NCBI GenBank assembly: GCA_017792345.1
Contig: CP051228.1
Coordinates: 1,054,001 to 1,118,000 of the forward strand
Reading direction: 5' to 3'
DNA from: Mesoflavibacter sp.
GTDB lineage: Bacteria > Pseudomonadota > Alphaproteobacteria > UBA8366 > Aestuariispiraceae
DNA: 64,000 nucleotides
Shown: positions 37,497 through 55,341 of the stretch, in pieces
How the letters are laid out: each line of letters begins with the position of its first letter
Position numbering within the stretch: the stretch's first letter is position 1
The notes under the pieces: generated by a model
What the model was told of the DNA's origin: nothing
Databases searched by the model: none
Seen by the model: only the letters and a program-made list of their open reading frames with translations
Made by a program: the position numbers and the translations under genes

Positions 37497-38416
37497 CCGC
37501 GCAGCATCAGGGTCCCGGCGCCGGCATCCATTTCCGCCGCCATCCGCGTGTCGGCGTTCAGGATCGGCGCGGCAAGCCAAGCCAGCGGCGCCCCCGCCGC
37601 GTCCCGAATTCGGGCGCGGCGGGTCGCGTTTTCCTTGCCGCGCGGATGCCCGGTCAGGTCGCCGCTCAACCAGTCATTCGCCACCGCCTCCGGCGCGGCG
37701 TGAATTCGCGTTTCCACGCCCAGATGCTCGATAACGCAGCCCTCCCCTGGCCTCGTTCCGGCCAGGCTGAACAGCGCGGGCAGCGCGATCGGGGTTTCGC
37801 GGATCATCCGGACAGCCGCAGTGTAATCCGTGCAGGTTTCAAAAGCGCGCCGCGCTAGATGGGCGGGCGGCAGCGCTCTGCTGCGCCCGACCTGGACACG
37901 ATCCCACAGCCAGCCCGCCGCGACCGGCCAGCCACGCTTCAGGCGCAGGGGCGCCTGATTGATCGCCAGGGAGAACCGACCCGGTGCCATCCCGGTGATC
38001 AGTCCCGCAAAACCCGGCCATGAGATGTTGTAGAAATCGCCTGCCGCGCCGGTCTGGTGGGCCACGACCAGCTCCCGTCCCAGCCCGTCGAAGGGCCAGT
38101 CCAGGGTCCGGCGCATCGACATGCCGCCGGACTCGGCCTCAGCGACGGCAGTGGTGCAGCCCCATTCGTAACAGAAATTCATGAACCAGATGCCGCGCGG
38201 CATACCCGCCGCCAGCTCGGCGATTTCCGCGCGGTAGGGATTGTCCGTCCGCGCCGCCCACCGCGAACTGCGCCCATCGAACAGGGTCACGACCGGCGCC
38301 GACATCTTGCGCTTGCCGGCCACCAACAACCGCTCCGCCCCGGCCCGGTGGGACCGGCACAGAAGCGCGGCGCCTCCTTCCCGGATATCGACCAAGGGGA
38401 TCACTGGCATTGTCAT
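37454..38416 (-). CDS. Ntn-type linear amide hydrolase (C45 / acid ceramidase-like)
   Basis: Protein of 320 aa with the self-processing Ntn hydrolase pattern of the C45/acid-ceramidase/NAAA group. A candidate nucleophile Cys87 is in [14 protein letters not shown], followed after a short gap by [10 protein letters not shown], the family G-x-RTLDW substrate strand. Autoproteolysis would occur before Cys87, leaving it as the new N-terminus. Members cleave N-acyl amides, penicillin-type side chains or ceramide-like lipids. It has no obvious signal peptide. A TTGAAC-ATT-GTTCAA palindrome lies just upstream. The 3' end overlaps the chemoreceptor gene by 43 bases. Confidence 0.75.
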
Positions 38417-38436
38417 CTTCTGTCTCTCTTAAGATT

Positions 38437-38451
38437 TGAACATTGTTCAAT
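38437..38451. promoter_or_regulatory. Operator-like palindrome before the amide hydrolase gene
   Basis: TTGAAC-ATT-GTTCAA is a perfect inverted repeat of two 6-base arms, 21 bases before the hydrolase start. On the minus strand a TTGAAT hexamer and a TAATTG hexamer lie just upstream at about promoter spacing, so a protein bound here would block transcription. The size suits a TetR- or MarR-type repressor, but no such gene is adjacent. Confidence 0.4.
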
Positions 38452-38526
38452 TACTGACAGACATAAGAATATTCAAGACCGAATCTAACGATTTCGATCC
38501 CGCCACGCGACTATCTTTAATCGGAA

Positions 38527-38582
38527 TGGTGCCCCCGGGGAGACTCGAACTCCCACTTCCGTAAGGAAAACAGATTTTGAGT
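38527..38582 (-). repeat. Left attachment site: tRNA-Leu 3' fragment
   Basis: 56 bases identical to 55109-55164. They cover the 3' end of tRNA-Leu(CAA) from the CCA through the T arm, variable arm and into the anticodon loop. Beyond base 38582 the match stops at once and no 5' half of a tRNA exists, so this is a non-functional remnant created by island integration. Confidence 0.95.
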
Positions 38583-38699
38583 TAGAAATTCTACTACTTT
38601 GCACCGCTGGGCATTACGCTGTTTTACGGTAAATATATGAAATAATTGACATAATTTGTTCGTGAGCTACTTTGGAGTACTGCTCAAATCTATCTGGCA

Positions 38700-38721
38700 T
38701 GCCATACGGGTGCCACACGGG
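38700..38721 (+). repeat. Tandem 11-bp repeat inside left island end (putative integrase arm sites)
   Basis: TGCCATACGGG is followed directly by TGCCACACGGG, two 11-base units with one mismatch. The same word recurs in the same orientation just inside the right island end. Position between the attachment core and the integrase start suits arm-type binding sites for the integrase N-terminal domain, and possibly autoregulation of its promoter. Confidence 0.55.
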
Positions 38722-38734
38722 ATCGGACCTCAGA

Positions 38735-39946
38735 ATGGCGAAAGTCAAACTTTCAAAGAGCCTAATCGATAGCTTGAAACCGGACGGGTCAAGGCGGGCC
38801 GACTACTTCGATGAGTCAATGCGCGGGTTCTTCCTGCGGGTTGAACCGAGTGGAACAAAAACGTTCTATCAGTTCTATAGAAACAAGGGCGGAAGAGGTC
38901 GCAACTTCAAGCTAGGCAGATACGGGGCCATTACCCTGTCACAGGCTCGCGATCTCGCCAGTGCTTGCATGTACGAAGTGTACAAAGGCAATGACCCTTC
39001 GGCTGATCGATCTGGGCATCGGCGTGACCCTACCGTTTCCGACCTAGCTAAGTTGTTTCGGGAACATCACATTACTTCAAAGTTGGCTGTGTCGACCCAG
39101 CGTGAGTACGGTCGCCTTCTCGACAAGCGTATCCTGCCAAAGCTCGGGTCATGGAAGGTAGTCGAAATTTCCCGGGCCGACGTTTTGAAGTGGCACCTCG
39201 AAATGAAAGAAACTCCGAGGGAGGCCAACCACGCGTTGGCGGTTCTCTCGAAAATGTTGAGCTTCTCGGTGAATACTTATGGCTTTCGAGAGAGCAACCC
39301 CTGCCTAGGTGTACAGAGATTTAAGGGATCGAAACGTGAACGGTTCCTTCAACCGGAAGAGTTCGCCCGACTGGGAAGCGCTATTCAAAAGGCAGCTTCA
39401 GATGGCGGCCGGAACATTTTCGCTGTACGTGCCATACAGCTCCTGGCCTTATCAGGTTGCCGTCGGTCTGAGGTGCTTTCTCTCAAGTGGACGTTTGTGG
39501 ACAAGGAACGTTCATGCCTTCACTTGCCAACCAGCAAAACCGGAAAGAAGACGGTTCCCCTTGGGGCACCCGCCTTGGCCTGTCTCCAATCAATTCCCAA
39601 GCTTAAAGGCTCAGTTTGGGTGTTCCCAAATTTTGATGGGGAAGGCCATCTAAGGGCGCTCGACTGGACATGGTATCAAATCAGGAAGGAGGCCGGACTC
39701 ACAGATTTGAGGCTGCACGATCTTAGGCATACGTTTGCGAGCGTTGGGGCATCGCAGGGCGTCGGGCTATCCATCCTCGGAAAAGCGCTAGGACAGTCGC
39801 AGTTGGCCACCACGCAGCGGTATGCACATTTGTACGATGATCCTGTGAACAACGCTGTCGGCTCCATCAGCGAATTCATTGAGGGAGCGATGTCCGGTCA
39901 TACCGCGAAGATCATTCCACTAGGGAAAGACAAGAAGGCCTCGTGA
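38735..39946 (+). CDS. int: Island integrase, tyrosine recombinase of the DUF4102/P4 type
   Basis: Site-specific recombinase of about 403 aa. The N-terminal DUF4102-type arm-binding domain has RRADYFDESMRGFFLRVEPSG and FYRNKGGRGRNFKLGRYG, then a core-binding helical domain, then a catalytic domain with Arg in LSGCRRSEVLSLKW, HDLRHTFAS (His-x-x-Arg) and the nucleophile Tyr in TTQRYAHL. It catalyses integration and excision at the 56-bp tRNA repeat. The frame is open 21 codons further upstream, but MAKVKLSKSLIDSL is the usual family start. It reads into the island from the left attachment site. Confidence 0.93.
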   Translation: MAKVKLSKSLIDSLKPDGSRRADYFDESMRGFFLRVEPSGTKTFYQFYRNKGGRGRNFKLGRYGAITLSQARDLASACMYEVYKGNDPSADRSGHRRDPTVSDLAKLFREHHITSKLAVSTQREYGRLLDKRILPKLGSWKVVEISRADVLKWHLEMKETPREANHALAVLSKMLSFSVNTYGFRESNPCLGVQRFKGSKRERFLQPEEFARLGSAIQKAASDGGRNIFAVRAIQLLALSGCRRSEVLSLKWTFVDKERSCLHLPTSKTGKKTVPLGAPALACLQSIPKLKGSVWVFPNFDGEGHLRALDWTWYQIRKEAGLTDLRLHDLRHTFASVGASQGVGLSILGKALGQSQLATTQRYAHLYDDPVNNAVGSISEFIEGAMSGHTAKIIPLGKDKKAS

Positions 39947-39955
39947 ACAACATCG

Positions 39956-39984
39956 TTGACGGGCGCATCCGTTATGTCTATACA
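39956..39984 (+). promoter_or_regulatory. Sigma70-like promoter before the AlpA-like gene
   Basis: TTGACG (39956-39961) and TATACA (39979-39984) are separated by exactly 17 bases. They lie 115 bases before the AlpA-like start and just after the integrase stop. It is one of the better promoter matches in the island and would drive alpA and probably the reverse transcriptase gene. Confidence 0.5.
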
Positions 39985-40099
39985 TATTTCTACGTAGTTC
40001 GCCGATACCAAGGAGGGTGTGCGAGCGTTGGCTTAAACATGAGCCAGCAGCTTAGCCCACCGAGGAAGGGGTGACGCTGGCTCCAAAGTGGAGAGTGTC

Positions 40100-40297
40100 A
40101 TGTCCGGTATCGCGCTAGAACTCCTTTCTGAACAAGAAGTCGCCAATTTGCTGCAGGTTAGTCCGCGCACGGTCCAGTCGTGGCGTCTCAATGGCTTTGG
40201 CCCTCCGTTCATCAAGGTCGGTCGTTTGGTCCGCTACCAGAAAAGCGAAGTGTTTCAGTTTCTTGCTGACAACAAACATGCGTCTACGTCCGCGTAA
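40100..40297 (+). CDS. AlpA-like helix-turn-helix protein, putative excisionase
   Basis: Small DNA-binding protein of 65 aa with a MerR-like helix-turn-helix (HTH_17): LLSEQEVANLLQVSPRTVQ, SWRLNGFGPPFIKVG, VRYQKSEVFQFL. Proteins of this type beside P4-type integrases act as excisionases or as activators of the integrase gene. The ATG at 40100 is preferred to a GTG four codons upstream because GGAGAG lies just before it. It is followed after 43 bases by the reverse transcriptase gene, with a 16-bp palindrome in the gap. Confidence 0.85.
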   Translation: MSGIALELLSEQEVANLLQVSPRTVQSWRLNGFGPPFIKVGRLVRYQKSEVFQFLADNKHASTSA

Positions 40298-40306
40298 GAG
40301 ACAATC

Positions 40307-40322
40307 ATGAAATTGATTTCAC
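40307..40322. repeat. Island palindrome copy 1, upstream of reverse transcriptase
   Basis: ATGAAATTGATTTCAC, arms TGAAAT / ATTTCA around two bases. It lies in the 43-base gap between the AlpA-like stop and the reverse transcriptase start (19 bases before the ATG). The same element occurs five times in the second recombinase gene and once in the UPF0489 gene. The position suggests an operator, but another role is possible. Confidence 0.75.
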
Positions 40323-40340
40323 GCGGGGTGTGAGGCTGGA

Positions 40341-41567
40341 ATGATGTCGAGTCTGACGAAATCCGAGAAAGATCAGATCAAGAAAGCTCGAAAGCGGACC
40401 AAGCAATTGTTGGATCGTGTCCGAGACGCTCGGCACAACAAGGCGAGGCACCAGGTTCGTCAGTGTTTCAAGTCCTTCGAGTTTCGGCTTGCTGCAGTAG
40501 ACCAAGCTCAACGGAAAAAGCGTCTCGGTACTTCGAAGAACCCGGTTAGTGTCGCTGAACTTCTTGATCCTTGGTACGGGACGACCGAAAAAGTCGGACT
40601 GAATGCCACCCCCAAATCCAAGGAGGGCGAGTTTCGTCCTACCGCCGAGTTCGGGCTCGAAAACACGGCCCTGCAAATTATGGTCCGAGATGTGTTGAAT
40701 GCTCGGGGGGCGTTTTCCGAATACCAAACCCAATTCAAAGGAGGTGTACCAGAAGCCATCAAGAGGGTTAGGGCAGCCCTGGAGTCCGGCAAGGTTTATG
40801 CTCTGACCTGTGACTTGCAGAACTGCTTCGGCAGTTTTCAGGAAGAGGGTCTTAAAGCCTCGCTACCGTTACCCAAAGAAGTGACCGAGAAAGTCGTTAT
40901 GTCTAAGGGCATGTCTTTCAGTCCTATGGGGATCCTTAATCAGATCATGAGCACGGATGAGATGCACGAACTGTGCAAAGGGGACGTGGACGACCACATC
41001 TCCGAATTTCTTATCCAGGCCCGGTCAGGCATTCCGCAAGGGTCCGTATGCTCGCCTGTCGTCGCGGAGACGATTCTCGCCCAAGTCTTCGGGCAAGTCG
41101 TTACGTCGTGTGAAGTCGTCAGTTATGCGGACAACACGATAATCCTCGGGACGGATGAAAACGCAGTGTGCGAGACTTTTAAAGCCTTGCGGAGTGCCTT
41201 TGAGGCACACCTGGCCGGGCCGCTTTCGCTCATGGTTGAAGGTCACTTTCAACCCGGCGATCCCATCCAGTTCTTGGGGGTCATGATCACGTTGAAGGGC
41301 GGTGTCGTGTCGGTAGATGTCTTGCCGAGCAAGGTACTTGAGATCAGGGAAAAGCTAAAAACGCTTCGCAAGAAAATTCGAGACCCGAAGAAGACAATCC
41401 GCCATCGGCAATATCTTTTAAGCAAATACATTCAGACTTCGAAAGGCTGGTGCAGCACGTATGCAGGGACCGAAAGCGTGAAGTTGTACGAAACCGAGTT
41501 CCGGAAAAAGCTGGAGCAATGTGTTCAATCCTGCGTGGAACCGGAACTGTTTTGCATTAATTGGTGA
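40341..41567 (+). CDS. Reverse transcriptase with YADN active-site box
   Basis: RNA-directed DNA polymerase-like protein of 408 aa. A basic, helical N-terminus (~1-60, many Lys/Arg) is followed by fingers (RPTAEFGLENTALQIMVRDVL), motif A with Asp158 (LTCDLQNCFGSF), the SGIPQGSVCSP motif (229-239), then VVSYADNTIIL at 259-269 where the usual YxDD is YADN, so the second catalytic Asp is Asn265. FLGVMI (311-316) matches the primer-grip motif, and a ~90-residue basic thumb-like tail follows. There is no maturase X, HNH or protease domain, so it is not a standard group II intron protein. Its neighbours are AlpA-like, RarA-like and recombinase genes. It belongs to none of the retron or DGR layouts I can recognise. 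Confidence 0.85.
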   Translation: MMSSLTKSEKDQIKKARKRTKQLLDRVRDARHNKARHQVRQCFKSFEFRLAAVDQAQRKKRLGTSKNPVSVAELLDPWYGTTEKVGLNATPKSKEGEFRPTAEFGLENTALQIMVRDVLNARGAFSEYQTQFKGGVPEAIKRVRAALESGKVYALTCDLQNCFGSFQEEGLKASLPLPKEVTEKVVMSKGMSFSPMGILNQIMSTDEMHELCKGDVDDHISEFLIQARSGIPQGSVCSPVVAETILAQVFGQVVTSCEVVSYADNTIILGTDENAVCETFKALRSAFEAHLAGPLSLMVEGHFQPGDPIQFLGVMITLKGGVVSVDVLPSKVLEIREKLKTLRKKIRDPKKTIRHRQYLLSKYIQTSKGWCSTYAGTESVKLYETEFRKKLEQCVQSCVEPELFCINW

Positions 41568-41823
41568 TGGACACTAGCGACAGGCTAGAGACACAAAAAA
41601 ACCATATTAACCCCCTCCCCATAATAGTGATTTCAAGAACCCAAGATATTGGATTCGTTTCAGATACTTACTCGGACTACATCACCAGGATAACGTAGAG
41701 ACACTTCGAACACCTCGCTCCAGTTAGTGTCTCCGCCTCTGATGACGTCGACTGATCCCCTCATTTACTGGTGTCAGGGGCAGCATAGCCTACCGGTGTG
41801 ATAACGAACCGGAGGCAATCCTA
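41568..41823 (+). other. Intergenic region after the reverse transcriptase, with GAGACAC repeats
   Basis: 256 bases with no convincing gene. GAGACAC occurs at 41588-41594 and 41698-41704, and its reverse complement at 41727-41733. GAGACACT (41698-41705) and AGTGTCTC (41726-41733) form a perfect 8-bp stem with a 20-base loop. A smaller stem CTAGC/GCTAG lies at 41574-41588. Because reverse transcriptases outside introns often use a neighbouring structured RNA, this is the best place to look for one. A GGAGGCA ribosome site at the end serves the next gene. Confidence 0.4.
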
Positions 41824-42954
41824 ATGAGATCAAAACCCGATACAGACAAGACCAACACCGCCCCCGACTTGGGGGCGTTTTCATTTGAACCTAAAGGCAG
41901 ACTGCCCTGCGACAGATGGTTGGCCAGCCGTGTATTGCCCAAGGCCATCCGTCGAGGTGATCTGGTCACCACAGAGCGAGCAGCGACAACACTGTCGATG
42001 CTGGACCGCAAGGGACTGTGGAGGCTCCTGCATCGGATTGCCTTCCACAACATCGGGATCGCCGACCCCGGACTTGTCTGGGCTGTATCAGCCTTTTGTC
42101 TGGACCCGATGTTCCGAGCGGCAAAAGGCGGCGACCTTCGCGTGGCCTATTGGCTATGCGGCCTGCTTGCGCAAAGCGTGAAGGACCGGACAGCGGTTCA
42201 ACTCGCCTACGCGGCCAAGCATCCCCCAAACGTGGAGAACGCCCGAAAGCGGATACTGAACCTAACCAGGAATGAACAGCTGGATATCATCCAGGACCGA
42301 TCCCAAGACTTGCTCGTGCGAGCTAACTCGGTGCTGTCCATCCTGGACAACGCAGGCCAGAAGTGCCGCACATCGAGAAGCGGTCTTGCTCAAGCATTTC
42401 ATTCCTTGGGGGTCGATGACCCGATTGTCTGGGTAGCCCTGACCTCCTCTCGTAAGTGCGGGGACAAGGCCATGGGGCTGTTACCGCTGCTGACCGCTCA
42501 GCTACTAAGGGAACCGCACGCGGGACCTATCTCCAGCACTCCGCCGATCCAAGAAGATGTGGAAGGCGTCCCGCTATACGCTTTGGATCACCGCATCGCG
42601 TCAGGTCGAACCATGTTGCGGGCCTGGGGAGAGATCGCCCCCACCCTTCGAACAGAAATGACCAAGACGGTCGCGAAAAGCAGAGGCTACACGGCCTCAA
42701 AACTCCTGCTGGAAGATATCGAGGGCGACCGATGCGCAACGGTCCTCGACTGGCCCACAGGTCGGGTGGTCACCGCATTATCGACCCAGGCGCTCTTGCA
42801 CCGACTGAAAACTTCTCCTGCGGAATGGAACGGGTTGAAGCGGGCCGCTAAGCGGGACCTCCCAATCCTGAATGAGTTACGACGAGAGGGGCTGAAAAAA
42901 CACATCGACCAGTTTCGGGCGACCGAGAACCGATATCGGGGGATCGACCAATGA
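41824..42954 (+). CDS. Protein resembling the RarA C-terminal helical region
   Basis: Protein of 376 aa. Residues ~35-125 read like the helical part that follows the ATPase in RarA/MgsA-type proteins: LPKAIRRGDLVTTERAATTL, then GLWRLLHRIAFHNIGIADP and LVWAVSAFCLD. No Walker A or B is present, so it has no ATPase of its own. The remaining ~250 residues are helical and basic and I do not recognise them. It lies between the reverse transcriptase and the second recombinase and overlaps the latter by four bases (ATGA), so the two are translationally coupled. A role in handling DNA at forks or recombination ends is a guess from the resemblance. Confidence 0.75.
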   Translation: MRSKPDTDKTNTAPDLGAFSFEPKGRLPCDRWLASRVLPKAIRRGDLVTTERAATTLSMLDRKGLWRLLHRIAFHNIGIADPGLVWAVSAFCLDPMFRAAKGGDLRVAYWLCGLLAQSVKDRTAVQLAYAAKHPPNVENARKRILNLTRNEQLDIIQDRSQDLLVRANSVLSILDNAGQKCRTSRSGLAQAFHSLGVDDPIVWVALTSSRKCGDKAMGLLPLLTAQLLREPHAGPISSTPPIQEDVEGVPLYALDHRIASGRTMLRAWGEIAPTLRTEMTKTVAKSRGYTASKLLLEDIEGDRCATVLDWPTGRVVTALSTQALLHRLKTSPAEWNGLKRAAKRDLPILNELRREGLKKHIDQFRATENRYRGIDQ

Positions 42955-44222
42955 GCCATCGTGTTACCTCCGATAATCCCCACTTATCGGACCCAAAACC
43001 GCGCGACAAAAACGCGCGTGAAACTGATTTCACCAAGGCACTTGGAGAGGCCCAATCATCAAATGAAATTGATTTCATCGGTGAGACCGGCCAATCGACC
43101 CAAATCGACCTGAGAGCCAGCGGTACAAACGAACCTGTATCACCTGATGAAACCAATTTCATCAACGAGAAAGTTTCCGCGTCGAGTTCTGGGAACTTAT
43201 ATGTCTGCACAAAAGCTGCCGTTGAAATTGATTTCACGGAAAATGGCATAGAATGCGGATCGCTCAATGGTGAAATCGATTTCACGACAACAGGCCAGGA
43301 CCAAATGAAACCCGGTCGTGTGCCACAGATTCCCGATGAAGCAGTTGCCCACTATCTGAGAAATGCGGTTTCAGAAAACACGATCCGGGCTTACCGGGCG
43401 GACCTGGAGCACTTCGAGGCATGGGGCGGCACCATCCCAGCCGCTCCCGGGACCGTCGCCGAGTACCTGGCAGCTCAGGCAGGCAAGTTGGCGGTCTCGA
43501 CCCTCCGCCGTCGTGTGGCTGCTCTAAGCGCCGTCCATGAGTCCAAGGGCCTTCCTAATCCTACCCACACGAAACTCGTTAAGGCCGCTCTACGGGGCAT
43601 CCAGCGGGCACACGGAACCCCTCAGGATCGGGCTTCCCCATTGCTGGTCGAAGACCTGACCCGAATTGTCGGATTGATGGGGGAGGACCCGAAATCGACA
43701 CGGGACAAAGCCCTCCTGCTGATAGGTTTCGCGGGTGGCCTTCGCCGGTCGGAATTGGTCGCCCTGAACCAGGAAGATATCGAGACCGCCCGACAGGGGA
43801 TCATAGTCACAATCCGCCGCTCCAAGACGGACCAGATGGGCGACGGCCGCCAGATCGGCATTCCCCACGCGAGAGGTCGTCACTGTCCTGTCCGATCCCT
43901 GGAAGCATGGCTAGAGCACTTGCCTGAGAGCCCCGACCCAATCTTCCGCCCCGTGACGAAGTCAGGACGGGTAGGGGATAGGAGATTGTCTACAGAGGCC
44001 GTTTCAAGACTCGTGAAGGGTGCGGTAGCATCCATCGGCCTGGATCCAGCCACCTTCTCCGGTCATAGCCTAAGAGCCGGACTCGCCACCAGCGCCGCCA
44101 TGCATGGTGTCAGCACTCTCGCCATCCGTCGCCAGACGGGCCATACGTCAGACAGTATGCTGGCCCGGTATGTTCGAAGCGGAGAGCTGTTCGTGAACAA
44201 TGCGGTCGGTTCATTGCTCTAA
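42951..44222 (+). CDS. Second tyrosine recombinase with palindrome-bearing N-terminal extension
   Basis: Tyrosine recombinase of 423 aa. The catalytic set is complete: Arg265 (GGLRRSELVAL), Lys292 (SKTD), His372 and Arg375 (GHSLRAG), His398 (TGH) and Tyr407 (ARYVR). The core-binding domain starts near residue 126. The first ~118 residues have no known domain and contain five E-[IT]-[DN]-F words, each encoded by a 16-bp palindrome. An internal ATG at 43305 (residue 119), with AGGACCAA before it, would give a 305-aa protein of standard XerC/D size, so the extension might be untranslated in part. The protein is unrelated in sequence to the island integrase and may act on sites other than the tRNA. 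Confidence 0.88.
   Translation: MSHRVTSDNPHLSDPKPRDKNARETDFTKALGEAQSSNEIDFIGETGQSTQIDLRASGTNEPVSPDETNFINEKVSASSSGNLYVCTKAAVEIDFTENGIECGSLNGEIDFTTTGQDQMKPGRVPQIPDEAVAHYLRNAVSENTIRAYRADLEHFEAWGGTIPAAPGTVAEYLAAQAGKLAVSTLRRRVAALSAVHESKGLPNPTHTKLVKAALRGIQRAHGTPQDRASPLLVEDLTRIVGLMGEDPKSTRDKALLLIGFAGGLRRSELVALNQEDIETARQGIIVTIRRSKTDQMGDGRQIGIPHARGRHCPVRSLEAWLEHLPESPDPIFRPVTKSGRVGDRRLSTEAVSRLVKGAVASIGLDPATFSGHSLRAGLATSAAMHGVSTLAIRRQTGHTSDSMLARYVRSGELFVNNAVGSLL
43018..43285. repeat. Array of five 16-bp palindromes in the recombinase 5' region
   Basis: Copies lie at 43018-43033 (GTGAAACTGATTTCAC), 43063-43078 (ATGAAATTGATTTCAT), 43147-43162 (ATGAAACCAATTTCAT), 43222-43237 (TTGAAATTGATTTCAC) and 43270-43285 (GTGAAATCGATTTCAC, a perfect palindrome). 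Start-to-start spacings are 45, 84, 75 and 48, all multiples of three. The base before TGAAA and the base after TTTCA pair in four of five copies, and the codon before each GAA ends in T although the amino acid differs. This shows selection on DNA symmetry and not only on the peptide. Confidence 0.9.
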
Positions 44223-44968
44223 ATGTCCAGCTCGAACATCTCACTTTCAAACCCATCCTTCTCAGAAGATATCAAGAGAACGTCTCCATAAATTCCAAAC
44301 TCCTGGGATAAGAGCCCCAAAATCTGTTCGTTGTCTTCGCCGATTTTCATCGGCTCGCCTTCATCGCAAACACAAACTGCATGCAGTATCTCGCTAATAT
44401 CCGTTCGCTTTAGCGAGAATAATGTTCGCAGATCGCCGTATGTCCAGGTCGGACCAGACCTATTGACATCATGAGCCAAAGCATCCCGATGCCATGCACA
44501 AGAGGACAAGTACGGATGCATCTCAGGCACCTGTTGATTGAAAGGTGCCTCACAGTAGATCATCTCAAACACCGCAAAACGATTTGCGAAAGGCGTTTGA
44601 CGTTTCAATTGATCACTAAAGTGAGAATCGCCATTGCTCTTTTGGGTGTAGTCCCAAGCGTCTGGCTTCACGCGCCGGGGAAGCTTGGCTTCGAAGAGCA
44701 TCACTTTGGTCTGATCGCCACTCCTAATAACAATTGTAGCATCACAACCCATCTTTTGTTCTGCCCGGTTCGGGAGCACATATGAAACCGCAGTCAGGCC
44801 TGTTCTTGTGTGAGAGTTAATGTTTCTCCTAAGTGCGCCTGTAAAGTTGGACGTGTAGTCATTCTCGCCCGTGATGAATCCGCCCACCAGATCGCTCCGA
44901 GCTTCTTTGTCCGCAAGAACCGCAAATCTGATGAGCTCAACGATCTGATCAATTGGCATTGGAAACAT
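44219..44968 (-). CDS. Predicted PD-(D/E)XK nuclease-like protein
   Basis: Soluble protein of about 249 aa. The only recognisable motif is GCDATIVIRSG...VMLFEAKLPRR near residues 75-100, the Asp...Glu-x-Lys signature of restriction-type nucleases, with a hydrophobic strand before each part. An upstream GENDYTSNF and a Cys-rich middle (YLSSCAWHRD) are not known to me. The start at 44968 is chosen because GGAGG is five bases before it; another ATG lies four codons upstream. It is convergent with the second recombinase, sharing four bases at the stop codons. Its place in an island with restriction genes suggests a defence or anti-mobile-element role. Confidence 0.65.
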   Translation of the reverse strand: MFPMPIDQIVELIRFAVLADKEARSDLVGGFITGENDYTSNFTGALRRNINSHTRTGLTAVSYVLPNRAEQKMGCDATIVIRSGDQTKVMLFEAKLPRRVKPDAWDYTQKSNGDSHFSDQLKRQTPFANRFAVFEMIYCEAPFNQQVPEMHPYLSSCAWHRDALAHDVNRSGPTWTYGDLRTLFSLKRTDISEILHAVCVCDEGEPMKIGEDNEQILGLLSQEFGIYGDVLLISSEKDGFESEMFELDI

Positions 44969-45341
44969 CGAGACCTCCATCCTCGTAAAACTTTAAAGAA
45001 TTCGACCATGTAGTGTGGGGCATAGATACCAGTTCTGAAACAGAATTTCCGCCAACTTCTTCATTTCCCTTTCGATTTGACACCTATCAGATTATCGTCA
45101 CGACAGAGCCACAACGCACGGCTTCGGGGCGTCATAACCCCACACGAAGCGGTCTGGCGAGACCGGAAAACCGTCCTCCGATCTATGGTCGGGGAGCCTG
45201 TGACGTATGTCCAGGACCCCGGTCTAAAGGTCACAGGGACCGTCTTCGTGCGGTTTATGAACTCCCCGATCACCAGATCGATTTGCCAACTTCCAGCGGG
45301 CGCGCTGGAGGCTCTGGCTTCGTCTAGGGTGGGGTAGCGAG
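44969..45341 (+). other. Low-coding region with one possible small gene
   Basis: About 370 bases between two genes. The first ~100 bases should carry the leftward nuclease promoter. A rightward frame at 45077-45337 could encode 86 residues; its second half (MVGEPVTYVQDPGLKVTGTV...) looks protein-like and it ends four bases before the next start. No good ribosome site is visible and overlapping frames exist on both strands, so I leave it as a possible gene only. Confidence 0.3.
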
Positions 45342-46325
45342 ATGATAAGCAAATGGGCGATGATCGCAGTTTGGGTGGCCTTTCTTGGCGTGGCTGCTGG
45401 GGGCCATTGGTGGTATCGGTGGTCAGGCAACCTAGAGGTAACCGGTGAGGTTGCTGAATCGGTCGCGCGTGTATCGGTTACTCGCTGCAATGATCGTCGC
45501 ATATTCAGCGATTGGCATAGCCAGTGTGAGTACATCTTTTCCTTCGATGAGACGCCACTGTACTACGAAGACGGTGTCAAAACGCGACTGACCCTGATTT
45601 ATGATGGGCGTAACCTGAGGCTTGTGGCCATGGTGCCTGATTGGTTTCACAACCGGTTCTACACCAATCGCATGCCGACACTCGCTGTATTGAGTCCCAC
45701 AACCTATGTCGCCGAACGAGCGTTTTTCTCCGGCCACAATCGATCCCCAGTTTTGACTGTTGGAGATCGGTCGTTCTCATCGTTTCGATGGACTGGAGAC
45801 GATGAGCATTGGATCGCCTCCGAAACCGATACCGCGAACTTCCTTGATGTACTTCTAGATGGCGCGGAGGTCGATGTTCAGTATTTCAATATGGCAGCGG
45901 GTGAGGAAACCGCCACGATCTCACTTTCGGGGTTTTCAACAGCACTAGAGTACATCGACTTCGGAAGTGCGGCGGCTGAGGTGAACGAAACTCCCCCGAT
46001 GACACCCTCGGCTGCTATTGCGGCTATCGCCCACCTTCTAACGACTAACAGCTTCGGGGTTTCGGCGGACAATCTCGTGGCACACCCAAACCCCCAGGGC
46101 CGGGGATACTTCGTCTCTGTGCCCGAGACCCGCTTTTCCGGCGCAGAACGAAAGTTCATATGGTTCGTGGTCAACGGTACAGCAATGAAATTGAATGGTG
46201 CGACCAATAATCTAACCCCAGATTTGCCCTGGCCCCGTGAGGTCGGTTCTGATGCGTTGGATGGCTCTGGACTATGGGCGTCTGAGGTGTTGAGAGTCGG
46301 GTTAGCGTTGGCGTTTAGCGAGTGA
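45342..46325 (+). CDS. Unknown membrane-anchored or exported protein
   Basis: Protein of 327 aa that I do not recognise. A hydrophobic N-terminal helix (residues ~5-24, MIAVWVAFLGVAAGG) acts as an uncleaved anchor or signal. The rest is predicted to lie outside the cytoplasm and is beta-rich, with two Cys (RCNDRRIF...SQCEY) that could form a disulphide. It overlaps the next gene by four bases (GTGA), so the two form a translation-coupled pair. GGGGTAGCGAG precedes the ATG. The codon mix is unlike that of the core genome. Confidence 0.75.
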   Translation: MISKWAMIAVWVAFLGVAAGGHWWYRWSGNLEVTGEVAESVARVSVTRCNDRRIFSDWHSQCEYIFSFDETPLYYEDGVKTRLTLIYDGRNLRLVAMVPDWFHNRFYTNRMPTLAVLSPTTYVAERAFFSGHNRSPVLTVGDRSFSSFRWTGDDEHWIASETDTANFLDVLLDGAEVDVQYFNMAAGEETATISLSGFSTALEYIDFGSAAAEVNETPPMTPSAAIAAIAHLLTTNSFGVSADNLVAHPNPQGRGYFVSVPETRFSGAERKFIWFVVNGTAMKLNGATNNLTPDLPWPREVGSDALDGSGLWASEVLRVGLALAFSE

Positions 46326-47125: not shown

Positions 47126-47190
47126 CCCCTTTGAATTTTGCCGTTGTACCAACTGGGAGAAGCGGTTGAGATAAAGCCCAGGCACGATTT

Positions 47191-48780
47191 ATGGCATACG
47201 AACTGTTGGGGGAGGCTGTGACCGAGGAGCAAAAAAGGCGGCTTGAGCAAAAGCTCTGGGACATTGCGAACACGCTGCGTGGACGGATGGATGCGGACGA
47301 GTTCCGCGACTACATCCTGGGCTTCATTTTCTACAAGTACCTATCCGAGAGGCTTCACCTCTATGTCGACCGCGAGCTTCTGAAGTCCGAAGGCAGAACC
47401 TTCACAAGCCTCGACGAGGATGATCCCAAGGACATGGAAATCCTCAAGGCGGTTGAGGAAGCTTGCGTTGAGAAGCTTGGATATTTCCTGCGACCGAACG
47501 AGCTTTTCACGGCGGTTGCGAAGCGGGGGAACGAGGCTGGCAGCTTCATCCTCGACGATCTGACCGAGACACTGAATAACATCCAGAAATCCACCATGGG
47601 CAACGAGTCCGAGGAGGATTTCATCAATCTGTTCGAGGACCTCGATCTCACGTCCACGAAGTTGGGGCGGACGAATGAGGCACGGAACACGATTATCGCG
47701 AAGGTCCTCGTCCATTTGGACGCTATCGACTTTCAGCTCGATAGCGCGGATGCGGATGTCCTGGGCGACGCCTACGAATACCTGATCGGAAAGTTCGCCT
47801 CGGGTGCGGGTAAGAAGGCCGGGGAGTTCTATACGCCTCAGCAGGTCTCAACCGTGCTGGCGAAGATCGTCACGACCGGTAAGGCGCGTCTGCGCTCTGT
47901 CTATGACCCGACCTGCGGTTCAGGCTCCCTGTTGCTGCGCGTCGCGCGGGAGGTCGGGCAGGAGAATGTGAACGACTTCTACGGCCAGGAACTGAACCGG
48001 ACCACCTACAACCTTGCGCGTATGAACATGCTGCTGCACGGGGTGCACTACCGCAATTTCGATATCCAGCAAGAAGACACGCTGGAACACCCTCAGCACG
48101 AAGGGATGACCTTCGAGGCAATCGTCGCCAACCCGCCCTTCAGCGCGAAATGGTCCGCCAACAAGATTTTCGAGAGTGACGACCGCTTCTCGGAATATGG
48201 CCGTCTCGCCCCGTCCTCAAAGGCAGACTTCGCCTTCGTCCAGCACATGCTCCACCATTTGGATGAAGACGGAACGATGGCCGTCGTATTGCCTCATGGT
48301 GTTTTGTTCCGAGGTGGCGCAGAAAGGATTATCCGCGAGTTCCTCGTCCGAAGAAATTTCTTGGATGCCGTTATCGGCTTGCCAGCGAACATATTCTACG
48401 GCACCGGCATCCCCACCTGCATCTTGGTGCTAAAGCGCTGTAAGGAAACGGAAAACATACTCTTCGTGGACGCATCGGCTTGCTTCCAGCGGGGCACCAA
48501 TCAGAACTGGCTCAGTACAGACGATGTTGACCGGATCGTAAGCGCATACCGAACTCGCGCAGAGGAAGAGCAATTTAGCCATCGCGCGAACCTCGACGAG
48601 GTTCTAGAGCACGATTTCAATCTCAACATCCCGCGCTACGTCGATACGTATGTGCCAGAGCCGCCGGTCGATCTTGATGAAGTAACCCGTCGCATCGAGC
48701 GCTTGAATATGGAAATGCAAGACGTTGACGAAGAACTTCGCGCCTACTGTGCCGAGCTAGGGCTGGAGGCGCCCGTATGA
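47191..48780 (+). CDS. hsdM: Type I restriction-modification methyltransferase subunit HsdM
   Basis: N6-adenine methyltransferase subunit of 529 aa. An N-terminal helical domain (DIANTLRGRMDADEFRDYI) is followed by the SAM-binding motif DPTCGSGSLLLR (239-250) and catalytic NPPF (314-317), then a C-terminal region that contacts HsdS. The length is typical. HsdM and HsdS form the methylase, and with HsdR the restriction complex. It is the first gene of the hsdMSR operon and its stop overlaps the hsdS start by four bases. A GTG nine codons downstream has a GGGGGAGG in front and is an alternative start. Confidence 0.95.
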   Translation: MAYELLGEAVTEEQKRRLEQKLWDIANTLRGRMDADEFRDYILGFIFYKYLSERLHLYVDRELLKSEGRTFTSLDEDDPKDMEILKAVEEACVEKLGYFLRPNELFTAVAKRGNEAGSFILDDLTETLNNIQKSTMGNESEEDFINLFEDLDLTSTKLGRTNEARNTIIAKVLVHLDAIDFQLDSADADVLGDAYEYLIGKFASGAGKKAGEFYTPQQVSTVLAKIVTTGKARLRSVYDPTCGSGSLLLRVAREVGQENVNDFYGQELNRTTYNLARMNMLLHGVHYRNFDIQQEDTLEHPQHEGMTFEAIVANPPFSAKWSANKIFESDDRFSEYGRLAPSSKADFAFVQHMLHHLDEDGTMAVVLPHGVLFRGGAERIIREFLVRRNFLDAVIGLPANIFYGTGIPTCILVLKRCKETENILFVDASACFQRGTNQNWLSTDDVDRIVSAYRTRAEEEQFSHRANLDEVLEHDFNLNIPRYVDTYVPEPPVDLDEVTRRIERLNMEMQDVDEELRAYCAELGLEAPV

Positions 48781-49958
48781 TCGAGATGGCCCCATCACCG
48801 GAACTTCGTTTTCCAGAATTTGAGGGCGACTGGAAGCCGGCCAAGGCGGGCGACGCATTCAGGAATAGCAAAAAAAAAGGAGAGGCCGGACTACCAATTT
48901 GGTCTGTGACCTTGGATCGCGGTTTAGTTCCTCGCGATAGCCTGGAACGGTACCTGGCTGCGGATGCGGCGGATGAGTCCAATCTTCGCGCGGAGCCTGG
49001 TGACCTTGTCTACAACATGATGCGGATGTGGCAAGGTGCGGTAGGTGTAGCAACCGAAGAATGCATGCTAAGTCCTGCGTATGTCGTATTAAGGCCGCGT
49101 AGTGGCATCTACTCCAAGTTCTTTGACTTCTGGTTTAAGAATCCGCGAATGCTGCATCAGCTCTGGGCCTACTCCCACGGACTGACCAATGATCGACTAC
49201 GATTATACTATGCCGATTTTGCGAGCATTCCTATTCGACTTCCCAGTTACGCTGAGCAAAAAAAAATTGCTGACATTCTGGATGCCGTTTCGAAGAGAAT
49301 CTCAATCTTGGGTGAAAAGAAACTGGCACTAGAGGAGTACAAGCGAGGTTTAATTCAGCGAATTTTCGACCAAGAGGTTCGCTTCCAAACCGAAAATGGA
49401 GGACACTTCCCAGCTTGGAAACATCGCAGACTTTGCGAAGTGTTTGAGGAACGGAAAGAGCGCGGCCATCCCGAAATGGAGTTGTTATCTGTTACCGTTC
49501 GGGAGGGCGTTAAGTTAGCTAGCGAGGTAGAACGGGCCCAGGAAGCAAGTGTAGATAGGACCAATTACAAGGTCGTTTCGGTTGGAGATTTGGCATACAA
49601 TTCAATGCGAATGTGGCAAGGAGCCAGTGGTGTTTCCGAATATGATGGGATAGTAAGCCCTGCATATACGGTAGCTATACCGAAGCCCAAGCAAGTGCCG
49701 GAATTTTGGAAATACTATGTGAAGCATCCTGATTTAGTGGGGAAATTTAGGAGATACTCTCAGGGACTTACTTCAGACACTTGGAGTTTAAAGTTTAAGC
49801 AGTTCTCCGAAATATCGGCCCCAATTCCATCCGAATCTGAGCAGCGAAAAATTGCCACATGTCTAGAAGCAGTTGATGCCAAAATAGTTGCAGTCAGCGA
49901 TACCCTTGGCGCTCTAAGGGACTTCAAAAAGGGCCTCTTACAAATGCTCTACGTGTAG
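48777..49958 (+). CDS. hsdS: Type I restriction-modification specificity subunit HsdS
   Basis: DNA-recognition subunit of 393 aa with two target recognition domains (~20-190 and ~215-390), each followed by a conserved helical spacer (EQKKIADILDAVSKRISIL and EQRKIATCLEAVDAKIVAV). The two domains are alike (YNMMRMWQGAVGV / YNSMRMWQGASGV; YSHGLTNDRL / YSQGLTSDTW), so the two half-sites they read are likely similar. Two in-frame runs of nine A (48870-48878 and 49258-49266) lie in the first domain's start and at the first spacer; slippage at either would truncate the protein. The gene overlaps hsdM and is followed ten bases later by hsdR. Its GC content is low for this genome. Confidence 0.95.
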   Translation: MIEMAPSPELRFPEFEGDWKPAKAGDAFRNSKKKGEAGLPIWSVTLDRGLVPRDSLERYLAADAADESNLRAEPGDLVYNMMRMWQGAVGVATEECMLSPAYVVLRPRSGIYSKFFDFWFKNPRMLHQLWAYSHGLTNDRLRLYYADFASIPIRLPSYAEQKKIADILDAVSKRISILGEKKLALEEYKRGLIQRIFDQEVRFQTENGGHFPAWKHRRLCEVFEERKERGHPEMELLSVTVREGVKLASEVERAQEASVDRTNYKVVSVGDLAYNSMRMWQGASGVSEYDGIVSPAYTVAIPKPKQVPEFWKYYVKHPDLVGKFRRYSQGLTSDTWSLKFKQFSEISAPIPSESEQRKIATCLEAVDAKIVAVSDTLGALRDFKKGLLQMLYV

Positions 49959-49968
49959 GTGGTTCCCG

Positions 49969-52860
49969 ATGTCTGTGCAGTCCGAAGCCCAACTCGAAGC
50001 GAGCCTGATCAGGCGACTTGCCGATCTTGGATGGGCGCAGGTCTCTATCCCTGACAACGATGGCCTCGGAGCCAACCTCAAGACGCAGCTTGAGGCGCAC
50101 AACGGGATACACTTCTCGGACGGTGAGTTCCGTAGCATCTTGAACCATCTCGGTAAGGGAGGAACTTTCGAGAAGGCGAAGACGCTGCGCGACCGGATGA
50201 CGCTTCAGCGGGATGATGGCAGCACGGCCTATGTCCAGTTCTTCAATAGCCACGAGTGGTGTCGGAACCGTTATCAGGTCACTAGCCAGGTCACGCAGGT
50301 CGGAACGTATGGCACCCGTTATGACGTGACGCTTCTGGTGAACGGCCTGCCGCTCGTTCATATCGAACTGAAGCGGCGGGGCATGGAGCTTCGCGAGGCG
50401 TTCAATCAGATCAATCGCTATCAACGCCACAGCTTCTGGGCGGGTAACGCGTTGTTCCAGTACGTGCAGATTTTTGTAATCTCGAACGGCGTAAATACGA
50501 AGTACTACGCCAACAACCGGCACCAGGATTTTAAGCAGACCTTCTTCTGGGCGGATGAAGAGAACAATCCGATCACCCGGCTTGAGGCCTTTGCCGACGC
50601 CTTCCTGGAGAAGTGCTTCGTCTCCAAGATGATCGCGAAGTATGTCGTCCTGCACGAGAGCGACAAGGTGCCGATGGTGCTGCGGCCCTATCAGTTCTAC
50701 GCCGTCGAGCGGATCCTCGACCGGGTCATGAAGGGGCGGAAGAACGGCTACATCTGGCACACCACCGGCTCAGGCAAGACCCTGACGAGCTTTAAGGCGT
50801 CCCAAGTGATCGTCGAGAACCCGAAGGTCGCCAAGGTCGTGTTCGTGGTTGATCGGGCCGACCTAGACTACCAGACGACCAAGGAGTTCAACCATTTTGC
50901 GCCCGGTTCCGTCGATGGGACGGACAATACGAAGGCGCTGGTCGCGCAGCTAAATGATCCAGACAACAAGCTCGTCGTGACGACGATCCAGAAGCTGAAT
51001 ACCGCGATCACGCGCGAACGCCACGGCGTGGCGATGGAGGGGCTGAAGGATCAGCGGATCGTCTTCGTCTTCGACGAGTGCCATCGAAGCCAATTCGGAG
51101 ACACGCATAAAAACATCGTCGCCTTCTTCACGAAGGCGCAATTGTTCGGCTTCACCGGAACACCAATCCTGGCCGAGAATGCGATTGGAAAGCGTACGAC
51201 CGCGGACCTCTTCGAAGATTGCCTCCATCGCTATGTCATTACGGACGCTATCCGGGACGAGAATGTGCTGCGGTTCTCGGTGGAATATTGGGGGAAGCTG
51301 CGCAAGAAGGATGGTTCACTGCTCTCCGAGGAAGAGGTTTCGGGCCTCAACGTCAAAGAGTTCTTTGAGAGTGAGGAACGGATTGAGGGGGTGGTCGATT
51401 GGGTCATCGAAAACCACGACCGCAAGACCCACAATCGTGAGTTCTCGGCGATTATGTGCGTCGGATCCGTCGACGCCCTCACAAAGACCTATGAAGCGTT
51501 TCGGCGCAAGAAGGCTAATGGCGAGCATACGCTGAAGGTCGCGACCATCTTCACCTTCGCAGCGAATGAGGATGACGCCGACGCGGATGGCCTGATTGGG
51601 GAACCGGACGTAACCGGCGGCCCTGTCAACGCCGCCACGCAGCACAGCCGGGATAAGCTCGCCTCCTATGTTGCGGACTACAACGCGATGTTCGGCACGA
51701 ACCATAGCGTCAAGGACGGCAAGGCCTTCTACGTCTACTACAAAGAGATCGCCAAGCGGATGAAGTGGCGGGATCGGAAGGGCTTCATCCCGGCGCAGGG
51801 CATCGACGTTCTTCTGGTCGTGAACATGTTCCTGACCGGGTTCGACGCGAAGACCTGCAACACACTCTATGTCGATAAGAACCTGCGTTACCACGGCCTC
51901 ATTCAGGCCTTCTCGCGCACGAACCGGATCCTCGGGCAGAAGAAGTCCCAGGGGAACATCGTGTGCTTCCGGAATTTGAAGACCCGGGTCGACGCGGCGA
52001 TTGCCTTGTTCTCGAACAAGGAGGCCGATGAAACGATCCTGATTGCGCCCTATCAGGACTATGTGGATCGCTTCAATGAGGCGGTCATGGAATTGCTGAA
52101 GATCGCCCCAACTCCGGCGGCCGTGGATCGGCTCGTTTCGGAAGAGGATATCCTCGCGTTCATCCGCGCTTTCCGGGAACTGATCCGCATCAAGAATGTT
52201 CTGACGACCTTTACCGAGTTCACCGACGACGACCTATCACTGGACGCTCAACGGTTCGAGGACTTCAAGAGCAAGTATCTGGACATCCATGACCGCATGA
52301 AGTCGGACCAGGATGACGATCACAAGGCGTCGATTGTCGATGAGGTCGACTTCGAACTCGAACTGATCCGGCGGGACAACATCAATGTCGCCTACATCCT
52401 TGCCCTCTTGGCGTCCGTTGCCGCCGAGCGGGATGACGCGGAAGAGGGCGCAGATGGGGATACGGCGAAGAAGACGAAGGCTGCGCTCGATCTCCTTAGC
52501 TCCGAGCCCAGGCTACGCAGCAAGCGCGAGCTGATCGAAGAGTTCATAGCCAGTTATCTCCCCGCGATGCGCAGTGAAGAGGAGACGCGAACCTCCTTCC
52601 TCGATTTCTGGACAGAGAAACGCGACGCCGCTTTCGAGCAGATATGTGTCGACGAAAAGTTGGACAGGGCCGGGTTTATGGGTCTGCTGGAGTCGTACCA
52701 GTTCTCCGGAAAGCCCCCTTTGACCGACCAGATTGTTGCGATCATGCAGGAGCCTCCTGGGATCCTCCAGAGAAAGCGCTCGGCCGAGCGGATCATGTCT
52801 AAGCTCAGAGACTTCGTTGAGACCTTCGACGAGGGAATGGGCGACATCGAGGCCGAGTAG
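49969..52860 (+). CDS. hsdR: Type I restriction-modification endonuclease subunit HsdR
   Basis: Translocase/nuclease subunit of 963 aa. The N-terminal nuclease has Asp119 in TRYDVTLLV and Glu133-x-Lys135 in HIELKRRG. The superfamily 2 motor follows with Walker A TTGSGKT (265-271) and DECH (369-372, VFDECHRSQFG), then the second RecA-like domain with the LLVVNMFLTGFDA and QAFSRTNR motifs, and a helical C-terminus that binds the methylase. It cuts unmodified DNA far from the recognition site after ATP-driven translocation. All catalytic residues are intact, so the system appears functional if HsdS is in frame. Confidence 0.96.
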   Translation: MSVQSEAQLEASLIRRLADLGWAQVSIPDNDGLGANLKTQLEAHNGIHFSDGEFRSILNHLGKGGTFEKAKTLRDRMTLQRDDGSTAYVQFFNSHEWCRNRYQVTSQVTQVGTYGTRYDVTLLVNGLPLVHIELKRRGMELREAFNQINRYQRHSFWAGNALFQYVQIFVISNGVNTKYYANNRHQDFKQTFFWADEENNPITRLEAFADAFLEKCFVSKMIAKYVVLHESDKVPMVLRPYQFYAVERILDRVMKGRKNGYIWHTTGSGKTLTSFKASQVIVENPKVAKVVFVVDRADLDYQTTKEFNHFAPGSVDGTDNTKALVAQLNDPDNKLVVTTIQKLNTAITRERHGVAMEGLKDQRIVFVFDECHRSQFGDTHKNIVAFFTKAQLFGFTGTPILAENAIGKRTTADLFEDCLHRYVITDAIRDENVLRFSVEYWGKLRKKDGSLLSEEEVSGLNVKEFFESEERIEGVVDWVIENHDRKTHNREFSAIMCVGSVDALTKTYEAFRRKKANGEHTLKVATIFTFAANEDDADADGLIGEPDVTGGPVNAATQHSRDKLASYVADYNAMFGTNHSVKDGKAFYVYYKEIAKRMKWRDRKGFIPAQGIDVLLVVNMFLTGFDAKTCNTLYVDKNLRYHGLIQAFSRTNRILGQKKSQGNIVCFRNLKTRVDAAIALFSNKEADETILIAPYQDYVDRFNEAVMELLKIAPTPAAVDRLVSEEDILAFIRAFRELIRIKNVLTTFTEFTDDDLSLDAQRFEDFKSKYLDIHDRMKSDQDDDHKASIVDEVDFELELIRRDNINVAYILALLASVAAERDDAEEGADGDTAKKTKAALDLLSSEPRLRSKRELIEEFIASYLPAMRSEEETRTSFLDFWTEKRDAAFEQICVDEKLDRAGFMGLLESYQFSGKPPLTDQIVAIMQEPPGILQRKRSAERIMSKLRDFVETFDEGMGDIEAE

Positions 52861-52938
52861 TCTGGTTGCATTTCAAGTTTGTCTCGCCGCAGAATGCGGA
52901 TGGCATTGAACGCGTTCTGCGGTTGGGGCGGGAAAAGT

Positions 52939-53994: not shown

Positions 53995-54060
53995 AACCGA
54001 TGCTCGTTTTGTCTCCCGAAACTGAGTACGGCAAACGGCTACTAGAAAGCAGACTCAGAG

Positions 54061-54789: not shown

Positions 54790-55108
54790 GAGCTTGGGTA
54801 GCACTAGGTAGCAACACCTTGTAAGAGGAAAGCTATCTGTCCGCCGCAGGTTAGATTGAACAAATATTTTAGACGCTTAGTCCTGAGATGCGGCCATGAA
54901 CATCCGTAGTAGTGTCGGTTACCTTCGTCGGCTAGTTTGCTCAGACTATCAGGTCACGCCCCAAGAGTGGACTTTGCTCGAGGATACAGCAAACGCCCGG
55001 TTCGAGCTTAGGTTATGGCGTTGAGCTCTTCTGCCACACATGTGCCACACGAAACGATTGCCACTTGCCGAGATGCCATTGAGAAATCTACGAAGTATTT
55101 GAAAAGTT
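54790..55108 (+). other. Right-hand island end without a clear gene
   Basis: About 319 bases between the last island gene and the tRNA. A 42-codon frame at 54896-55024 (MNIRSSVGYLRRLVCSDYQV...) ends within it but has no ribosome site and is of doubtful reality. The last ~80 bases contain the TGCCAC-type repeat cluster described separately. Confidence 0.5.
55032..55080 (+). repeat. TGCCAC repeat cluster inside right island end (putative integrase arm sites)
   Basis: TGCCACACATG at 55032-55042 is followed at once by TGCCACACGAA at 55043-55053, then TGCCACTTGCC at 55059-55069 and TGCCATT at 55074-55080. The 11-base period and the word match the tandem pair at 38700-38721 near the left end. They sit 30-75 bases from the right attachment core. 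Confidence 0.55.
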
Positions 55109-55195
55109 TGGTGCCCCCGGGGAGACTCGAACTCCCACTTCCGTAAGGAAAACAGATTTTGAGTCTGCCGCGTCTACCAATTCCGCCACAGGGGC
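55109..55195 (-). tRNA. tRNA-Leu (anticodon CAA)
   Basis: An 87-base gene on the minus strand with encoded CCA. Acceptor GCCCCTG pairs with CGGGGGC, the D arm contains GAATTGGTAGACGC, the anticodon loop is CTCAAAA (anticodon CAA, decoding UUG), a long variable arm identifies the Leu class, and the T loop is GTTCGAGTC. Bases 55109-55164 (the 3' part) form the right attachment site of the island, so the intact tRNA has been rebuilt with island-borne 3' sequence and stays functional. Confidence 0.97.
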
Positions 55196-55341
55196 CTCAG
55201 CCGGGTGAATAGGCGAAAAAGGGGGGACCTTCAACCGGTTTTGCGCAGCATGGAAAACTGGGGCCGGAAAAGAAGGCTCGCCACGGCGGGGGCGGCTGGG
55301 CTACCCTTGGCGCGATTGTGGTGAGGGGACCGTTAGGAACG

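What the first reader, a model, noticed from the sequence alone, without database searches (positions are those of the whole stretch)
40100..44222. Possible new element: AlpA-like protein, YADN reverse transcriptase, RarA-like protein and second recombinase
Four consecutive same-strand genes combine a reverse transcriptase with a tyrosine recombinase and a protein resembling the RarA helical region. The last two are translation-coupled (ATGA). The palindrome family marks both the reverse transcriptase leader and the recombinase 5' region, which links the genes as one system. I know of no described retron, DGR, Abi or DRT layout with this set. The P4-type integrase already explains integration of the island, so the second recombinase needs another purpose.
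Basis: partly seen in the sequence, partly recalled or inferred. Interest (0 to 1): 0.85.

Follow-up and report, generated by a model that had tools for sequence, protein, structure and literature searches.

The report
Cre-like recombinase module in RT-bearing island
A 16.6-kb mobile island sitting in a tRNA gene carries a Cre-like DNA recombinase whose own predicted target site is written inside its gene, paired with a protein resembling one end of the replication factor RarA without its motor; the reverse transcriptase next door looks like a passenger and not a fixed partner.

Summary
The four genes are real, same-strand and intact, and lie in a 16,582-bp island (56-bp direct repeats, tRNA-Leu target, empty site in a same-genus genome). 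The claimed trio is not a unit. In 385 alphaproteobacterial genomes the RarA-like protein occurs at seven other places, always next to the recombinase and never with a reverse transcriptase nearby. Four of those loci have a replication gene upstream instead (Rep-like, or primase/helicase). Three distant RT relatives sit in other integrase-bearing regions without the pair. The conserved unit is therefore RarA-like protein plus recombinase. The recombinase is Cre-like, with all catalytic residues. The site recurs at the start of relatives, survives a symmetrical change of both arms, and lies near distant relatives in other phyla. The RarA-like protein keeps about 100 residues of RarA's C-terminal helical region and has no ATPase. 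Most likely this is a multimer-resolution system with an accessory protein, like Cre/lox or TnpS-TnpT/rst. The RT is group II-like, probably a separate defence passenger. The TGAAATYGATTTCA palindromes are real but unique to this element.

The parts
38527..38582 (.). left 56-bp direct repeat (att) of the island
   Evidence: identical to 55109-55164; empty site in same-genus G003
55109..55164 (.). right 56-bp direct repeat = 3' part of tRNA-Leu(caa) 55109-55195 (-)
38672..39946 (+). island integrase, P4-type tyrosine recombinase (Arm-DNA-bind_3 + Phage_integrase)
   Evidence: Pfam
40088..40297 (+). AlpA/excisionase-like HTH protein (ATG alternative at 40100)
   Evidence: HTH_17 1e-11; excisionase PHROG 66 6e-10; 44% identical HTH in Rep-bearing relative L243
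40308..40321 (.). palindrome TGAAATTGATTTCA in the RT leader
40341..41567 (+). group II-like reverse transcriptase, YADN, no maturase domain; passenger in this context
   Evidence: RVT_1 8.7e-10; PDB group II maturase RT 1.6e-23 for the RT alignment; fold match to GsI-IIC and G2L4 RT; distant relatives without the pair
41824..42954 (+). RarA C-terminal-region-like protein without ATPase domain; putative accessory factor of the recombinase
   Evidence: profile vs RarA/MgsA C-terminal fragments 1.1e-7, residues 37-98; structure match of about 100 residues at 2.4-3 A; no Walker A in 8 members; found at 7 other places, always next to the recombinase
41859..41877 (+). terminator-like hairpin followed by TTTT, just inside the RarA-like ORF
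   Evidence: consensus scan only
42951..44222 (+). Cre-like tyrosine recombinase; R265 K292 H372 R375 H398 Y407 all present
   Evidence: profile versus PDB: Cre 5e-24, XerD 3e-14; 37% identical to SCre over 294 aa; residues invariant in 9 relatives
42969..42991 (.). putative lox-like recombination core TCCGATAA-N7-TTATCGGA inside the 5' coding region of the recombinase
   Evidence: half-site identical to SloxP
43019..43284 (.). five palindrome copies (43019, 43064, 43148, 43223, 43271) in a lineage-specific insertion of about 85 aa in the recombinase N-terminus
44219..44980 (-). convergent cargo gene, possibly a PD-(D/E)XK-type nuclease by eye only
   Evidence: no Pfam match; not similar in sequence to the PDDEXK_4 gene at the same position in L243
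45106..45317 (+). conserved structured element, weakly sRNA-Xcc1-like (sub-threshold)
   Evidence: Rfam 28.4 bits versus gathering 53; 75% identical block in L104, also in L242; fold z-score -3.65
47191..52860 (+). type I restriction-modification cargo: hsdM 47191-48780, hsdS 48777-49958, hsdR 49969-52860
   Evidence: Pfam

Best explanation
The functional unit is a two-gene site-specific recombination module, a RarA-C-like protein plus a Cre-like recombinase, with its own lox-like core site embedded in the start of the recombinase gene. In related tRNA-integrated islands it sits between replication-type genes and defence cargo. The recombinase most likely recombines two copies of its core, which arise when the excised circular island forms dimers or cointegrates, and so resolves multimers, as Cre/lox does for P1 and TnpS-TnpT/rst does for Tn4651-type transposons. 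The RarA-like protein, made in coupling with it, most likely acts as the accessory factor (TnpT-like role) that assembles or directs the synapse. The adjacent RT is a separate passenger, most likely a defence RT. Shown: island borders, catalytic residues, the conserved site and its linkage, the module without an RT. Inferred: recombination at the site, resolution as its purpose, the RarA-like role, the RT role.
For: The RarA-like gene was found at seven other places in 385 alphaproteobacterial genomes, each adjacent to the recombinase and mostly overlapping it or nearly so; no member has a Walker A. The recombinase is nearest to Cre among solved structures, with invariant R-K-H-R-H-Y. The core TCCGATAA-N7-TTATCGGA lies at the recombinase start in the window, L103, L104, L149 and, with one mismatch, L242 and L246. 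In L244 both arms changed together (CGGGATAA...TTATCCCG), and in L245 the site (one mismatch) lies at the end of the RarA-like gene just before the recombinase start, so DNA rather than peptide is kept. Loci fetched by the site alone are rich in this recombinase family: about 10 of 90 viral loci and about 20 of 77 genome loci have it within some 400 bp. The half-site equals SloxP, found on the plasmid that also carries a 37%-identical recombinase. Plasmid relatives at about 40% identity have the TnpS-TnpT layout of a recombinase with a divergent DNA-binding gene. Replication genes lie upstream in L103, L242, L243 and L245.
Against: No recombination was observed. Each element shows one good core only, which suits resolution but does not exclude integration or cargo exchange. 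L243 has no recognisable site. Accessory function of the RarA-like protein is inferred from position; the distances of the two proteins correlate only because of one close pair. RarA-C-like stand-alone proteins also exist in phages without an annotated recombinase nearby. The window island has no recognised replication gene, so whether it replicates as a circle is unknown.
Confidence: 0.6

Rival explanations
1. Cargo exchange: the recombinase acts at its lox-like site, or between it and related sites, to insert and exchange defence genes, so that the border behind the recombinase becomes a cargo hotspot, in the manner proposed for gamma-mobile-trio elements.
For: What lies directly behind the recombinase differs between islands (R-M in L245, Fic module then R-M in L242, nuclease in L243 and L104, convergent gene then R-M in the window). 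A conserved structured element is found near cargo in three islands.
Against: No second copy of the core flanks any cargo in the window. Similarity to GmtY is not significant (0.013, 14.8 bits against a cut-off of 340).
Confidence: 0.2
2. One reading: HTH, RT, RarA-like protein and recombinase form one reverse-transcription-dependent system.
For: Consecutive same-strand genes; a palindrome family unique to this element marks the RT leader and the recombinase 5' region.
Against: Module at seven other places without an RT nearby; RT relatives without the module; 256-bp gap and terminator-like hairpin between RT and module.
Confidence: 0.07
3. The recombinase is a second integrase that once moved a smaller element (HTH-Rep-RarA-like-recombinase, as in L103) into larger islands; the module is a nested mobile element.
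For: L103 is a compact run of four genes; L149 and L244 show the recombinase or the pair among host-like genes.
Against: No flanking duplication of the core in any locus; position relative to replication genes and cargo is kept in several tRNA islands. The empty site of L103 could not be found.
Confidence: 0.13

Closest known systems
Cre/lox-type systems, in particular SCre/SloxP (Shewanella sp. ANA-3 plasmid)
   Same: Cre-like recombinase, 37% identity to SCre over 294 aa; half-site TCCGATAA identical to SloxP
   Different: 7-nt instead of 6-nt spacer between the octamers; site inside the recombinase's own 5' coding region; coupled RarA-like gene; chromosomal island and not a plasmid
TnpS-TnpT/rst of Tn4651-type Tn3-family transposons
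   Same: Cre-like recombinase (about 40% identity to the plasmid relatives with this layout) plus a helper protein and an adjacent inverted-repeat core (PMC7157771)
   Different: helper there is divergent and described as without apparent homology to other proteins; here it is co-directional and RarA-C-like; no Tn3 transposase
RarA/MgsA
   Same: about 100 residues of the helical C-terminal region
   Different: AAA+ ATPase domain absent; about 240 further residues of unassigned helical fold
Gamma-mobile-trio elements (GmtX/Y/Z)
   Same: a tyrosine recombinase beside unfamiliar partners in islands with defence cargo (own knowledge; NCBIfam name)
   Different: GmtY similarity not significant; one partner and not two; not Gammaproteobacteria
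Group II intron-like RTs (G2L, CRISPR-associated RTs, UG/DRT)
   Same: RT domain and fold
   Different: YADN, no maturase domain, no intron RNA, no cas genes seen in the island; only weak match to any named DRT

Membership tests
Cre-type tyrosine recombinase | closest to Cre, with conserved R-K-H-R-H/W-Y | tested here: met
Cre/lox-type system | inverted-repeat core with short spacer at or near the gene | tested here: met
Cre/lox-type system | recombination between two sites | not testable with these tools
   needs an assay
TnpS-TnpT/rst | divergent tnpT with rst between the genes, on a Tn3-family transposon | tested here: not met
   co-directional RarA-like gene, no transposase recognised in the island
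Gamma-mobile-trio | GmtY above the curated cut-off | tested here: not met
   14.8 bits against 340
RarA/MgsA | AAA+ ATPase domain with Walker A | tested here: not met
   no Walker A in 8 members; almost all-helical model
RarA C-terminal region | significant similarity to the C-terminal fragment | tested here: met
   1.1e-7; about 100 residues superpose, Foldseek probability 1.00 though E-value 0.1
Retron | retron RT with NAxxH and VTG motifs and msr-msd leader | tested here: not met
   neither motif; 43 nt between HTH and RT; retron model 0.0044 at 16 bits against 235
DGR | template/variable repeat pair | tested here: not met
   no such repeat reported in 38200-56000
Group II intron | intron RNA and maturase domain | tested here: not met
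   no Rfam intron match, no maturase Pfam domain
Named DRT/Abi RT groups | strong match to one group model | tested here: inconclusive
   window RT best UG26 1.2e-7, Drt9 1.3e-6; generic RT models score higher; no RT tree built
Integrative genomic island | integrase, att direct repeats, empty site | tested here: met

The most novel reading that the evidence does not exclude
The RT has taken the slot of the replication gene in this island family and takes part in propagation of the element, its product being circularised or resolved by the Cre-like recombinase at the lox-like site: a mobile island whose life cycle includes reverse transcription.
Probability: 0.05. Interest if true: 0.88.

Novelty: new variant of a known kind. 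Interest (0 to 1): 0.5.

Why it matters
It defines an apparently unnamed two-gene recombination module in alphaproteobacterial islands with a precise predicted target site, and gives the ATPase-less RarA-C-like protein a testable role as recombination accessory factor. It offers a natural Cre-like recombinase with a lox-like site embedded in its own gene, and a marker for a family of defence-carrying islands. It also shows that the striking RT neighbour is not part of the conserved unit.

Tried and rejected
Plasmid search with the window RarA-like protein and the RT: none. Intergenic 41568-41823 as a structured ncRNA: fold z-score -0.78, rejected. Promoters: one weak match, as expected by chance. 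sRNA-Xcc1-like element as linked to the recombinase: it precedes a nuclease-like gene in L242, so it goes with cargo and not with the recombinase. Retron, DGR and group II intron: rejected (see membership test). The genes convergent with the recombinase in the window and L243 are not homologous by sequence. Co-divergence of the two proteins: not significant without the one close pair. Empty site of L103: not found. The SCre paper itself is not held, so the names SCre and SloxP and their recombination activity are own knowledge; the sequence was confirmed in the plasmid record. The RT model is of low confidence (pLDDT 58).

Full report
What is there. The window lies in a 4.9-Mb single-contig genome. 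A genome scored as 'same class' (G327) carries a contig that is named Alphaproteobacteria in the public collection, so the host is inferred to be an alphaproteobacterium. The cassette is part of an island bounded by 56-bp direct repeats, 38527-38582 and 55109-55164, the latter being the 3' part of a tRNA-Leu gene. In a same-genus genome the two flanks are contiguous across one copy of the repeat, so the island is 16,582 bp and was acquired by integration. A P4-type integrase (38672-39946) accounts for integration. Cargo includes a complete type I R-M system.

The four genes are as described. The RarA-like gene (41824-42954) has no Pfam family, but its profile hits RarA/MgsA C-terminal fragments among solved structures (1.1e-7) and what are probably the genuine RarA genes of many genomes (about 440 aa) over the same 100 columns. 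The predicted structure is almost all-helical and confident (pLDDT 87) and superposes on these fragments over about 100 residues. No member has a Walker A. It is thus an ATPase-less protein with one RarA-related region.

The conserved unit. A profile of the RarA-like protein in 385 alphaproteobacterial genomes returned seven true members besides the window's gene: L103, L104, L242, L243, L244, L245 and L246 (loci). Each is followed at once by the recombinase. None has an RT nearby by profile. Four have a replication gene upstream instead: a Rep-like protein in L103, L242 and L243 (Rep_trans 5.5e-6 in L243) and primase/helicase in L245. Type I R-M lies behind the recombinase in L242 and L245, as in the window. 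The window differs in having the RT in that slot. The RT's nearest relatives found (22-27% identity in the alignment) sit in other integrase-bearing regions, two of them with a tRNA gene close by, without the pair.

The recombinase and its site. The recombinase profile is closest to Cre (5e-24), then XerD (3e-14); the catalytic residues are invariant in nine relatives. The same palindrome is at the start of the recombinase in L103, L104 and L149, and with one mismatch in L242 and L246; in L245, also with one mismatch, it lies just ahead of the recombinase, at the end of the RarA-like gene. In L244 the outer bases of both arms have changed so that the palindrome is kept while the peptide changes from SDN..LSD to RDN..LSR. 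L243 lacks it. Scans of two collections with the site alone found the same recombinase family close by in about 10 of 90 viral and about 20 of 77 genome loci, in several phyla; many of the remaining hits are expected by chance. The TCCGATAA octamer is the half-site of SloxP, present in the Shewanella plasmid that encodes a recombinase 37% identical to the window's. Plasmid relatives at about 40% have the TnpS-TnpT layout. The site is therefore very likely the recombinase's target.

The TGAAATYGATTTCA palindromes are specific to this element: four exact places in the genome, all in the cassette, none in any other locus fetched. Five copies sit in an insertion of about 85 residues that relatives lack, directly behind the core. 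Recoding tests show that the DNA repeat, beyond the peptide, is kept. They may be operators or accessory sites; L103 has two copies of an unrelated palindromic repeat of its own, after its rep gene and inside its RarA-like gene.

Mechanism. By analogy with P1 Cre/lox and TnpS-TnpT/rst, one core per element plus a helper protein suits multimer or cointegrate resolution of the excised circle. Integration or cargo exchange is not excluded. The RT has RVT_1 and a group II-like fold, with YADN (N in place of the second catalytic Asp, also HCDN in relative L253), no maturase domain and no intron RNA; its role is most likely that of a defence passenger, which was not tested.

Verdict. Observation confirmed; interpretation partly supported. 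New variant of a known kind (Cre-like resolution module with a RarA-C-like partner), interest 0.5.

Noticed in passing
window 45106-45317: Conserved, strongly folding 212-bp element, weakly sRNA-Xcc1-like, about 75% identical in L104 and also present in L242, where it precedes a nuclease-like gene; recurrent near island cargo.
   Followed up: partly
L105-L134 (Rfam RF02221 loci): sRNA-Xcc1-like elements in 26 of 190 alphaproteobacterial genomes, 13 copies in one of them; looks like a dispersed structured element.
   Followed up: no
window 41859-41877: Strong G+C hairpin with TTTT 35 nt inside the RarA-like ORF; possible attenuator separating RT from the module.
   Followed up: no
L103:9530-9553 and 10449-10472: 24-nt palindromic repeat TGTCCCGGGACAGGTrTCGGGACA, one copy after rep and one inside the RarA-like gene; a different sequence in the same kind of pattern as the window's palindromes.
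   Followed up: no
L286, L287, L289 (phages KarBoss, RcZahn, RHph_Y1_11): Stand-alone RarA-C-like proteins in phages, in RcZahn and RHph_Y1_11 beside sugar epimerase and aminotransferase genes, none with a recombinase annotated nearby; a wider unnamed family.
   Followed up: partly
L142, L150, L156, L163, L173, L178, L187, L199, L203-L205 (mostly Nocardia): The same TCCGATAA-N7-TTATCGGA palindrome about 220-415 bp upstream of the conserved domain of a Cre/Xer-like recombinase in many Nocardia genomes.
   Followed up: no
L255:3042: Alicyclobacillus plasmid pAACI01 has a long palindrome around TCCGATAAGTGATTGTTATCGGA about 0.9 kb upstream of a recombinase 48% identical to the window's.
   Followed up: no
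L253:8671-10305: RT relative with HCDN in place of YxDD, in an integrase-bearing region near tRNA-Ala; second case of Asp to Asn in this RT group.
   Followed up: no
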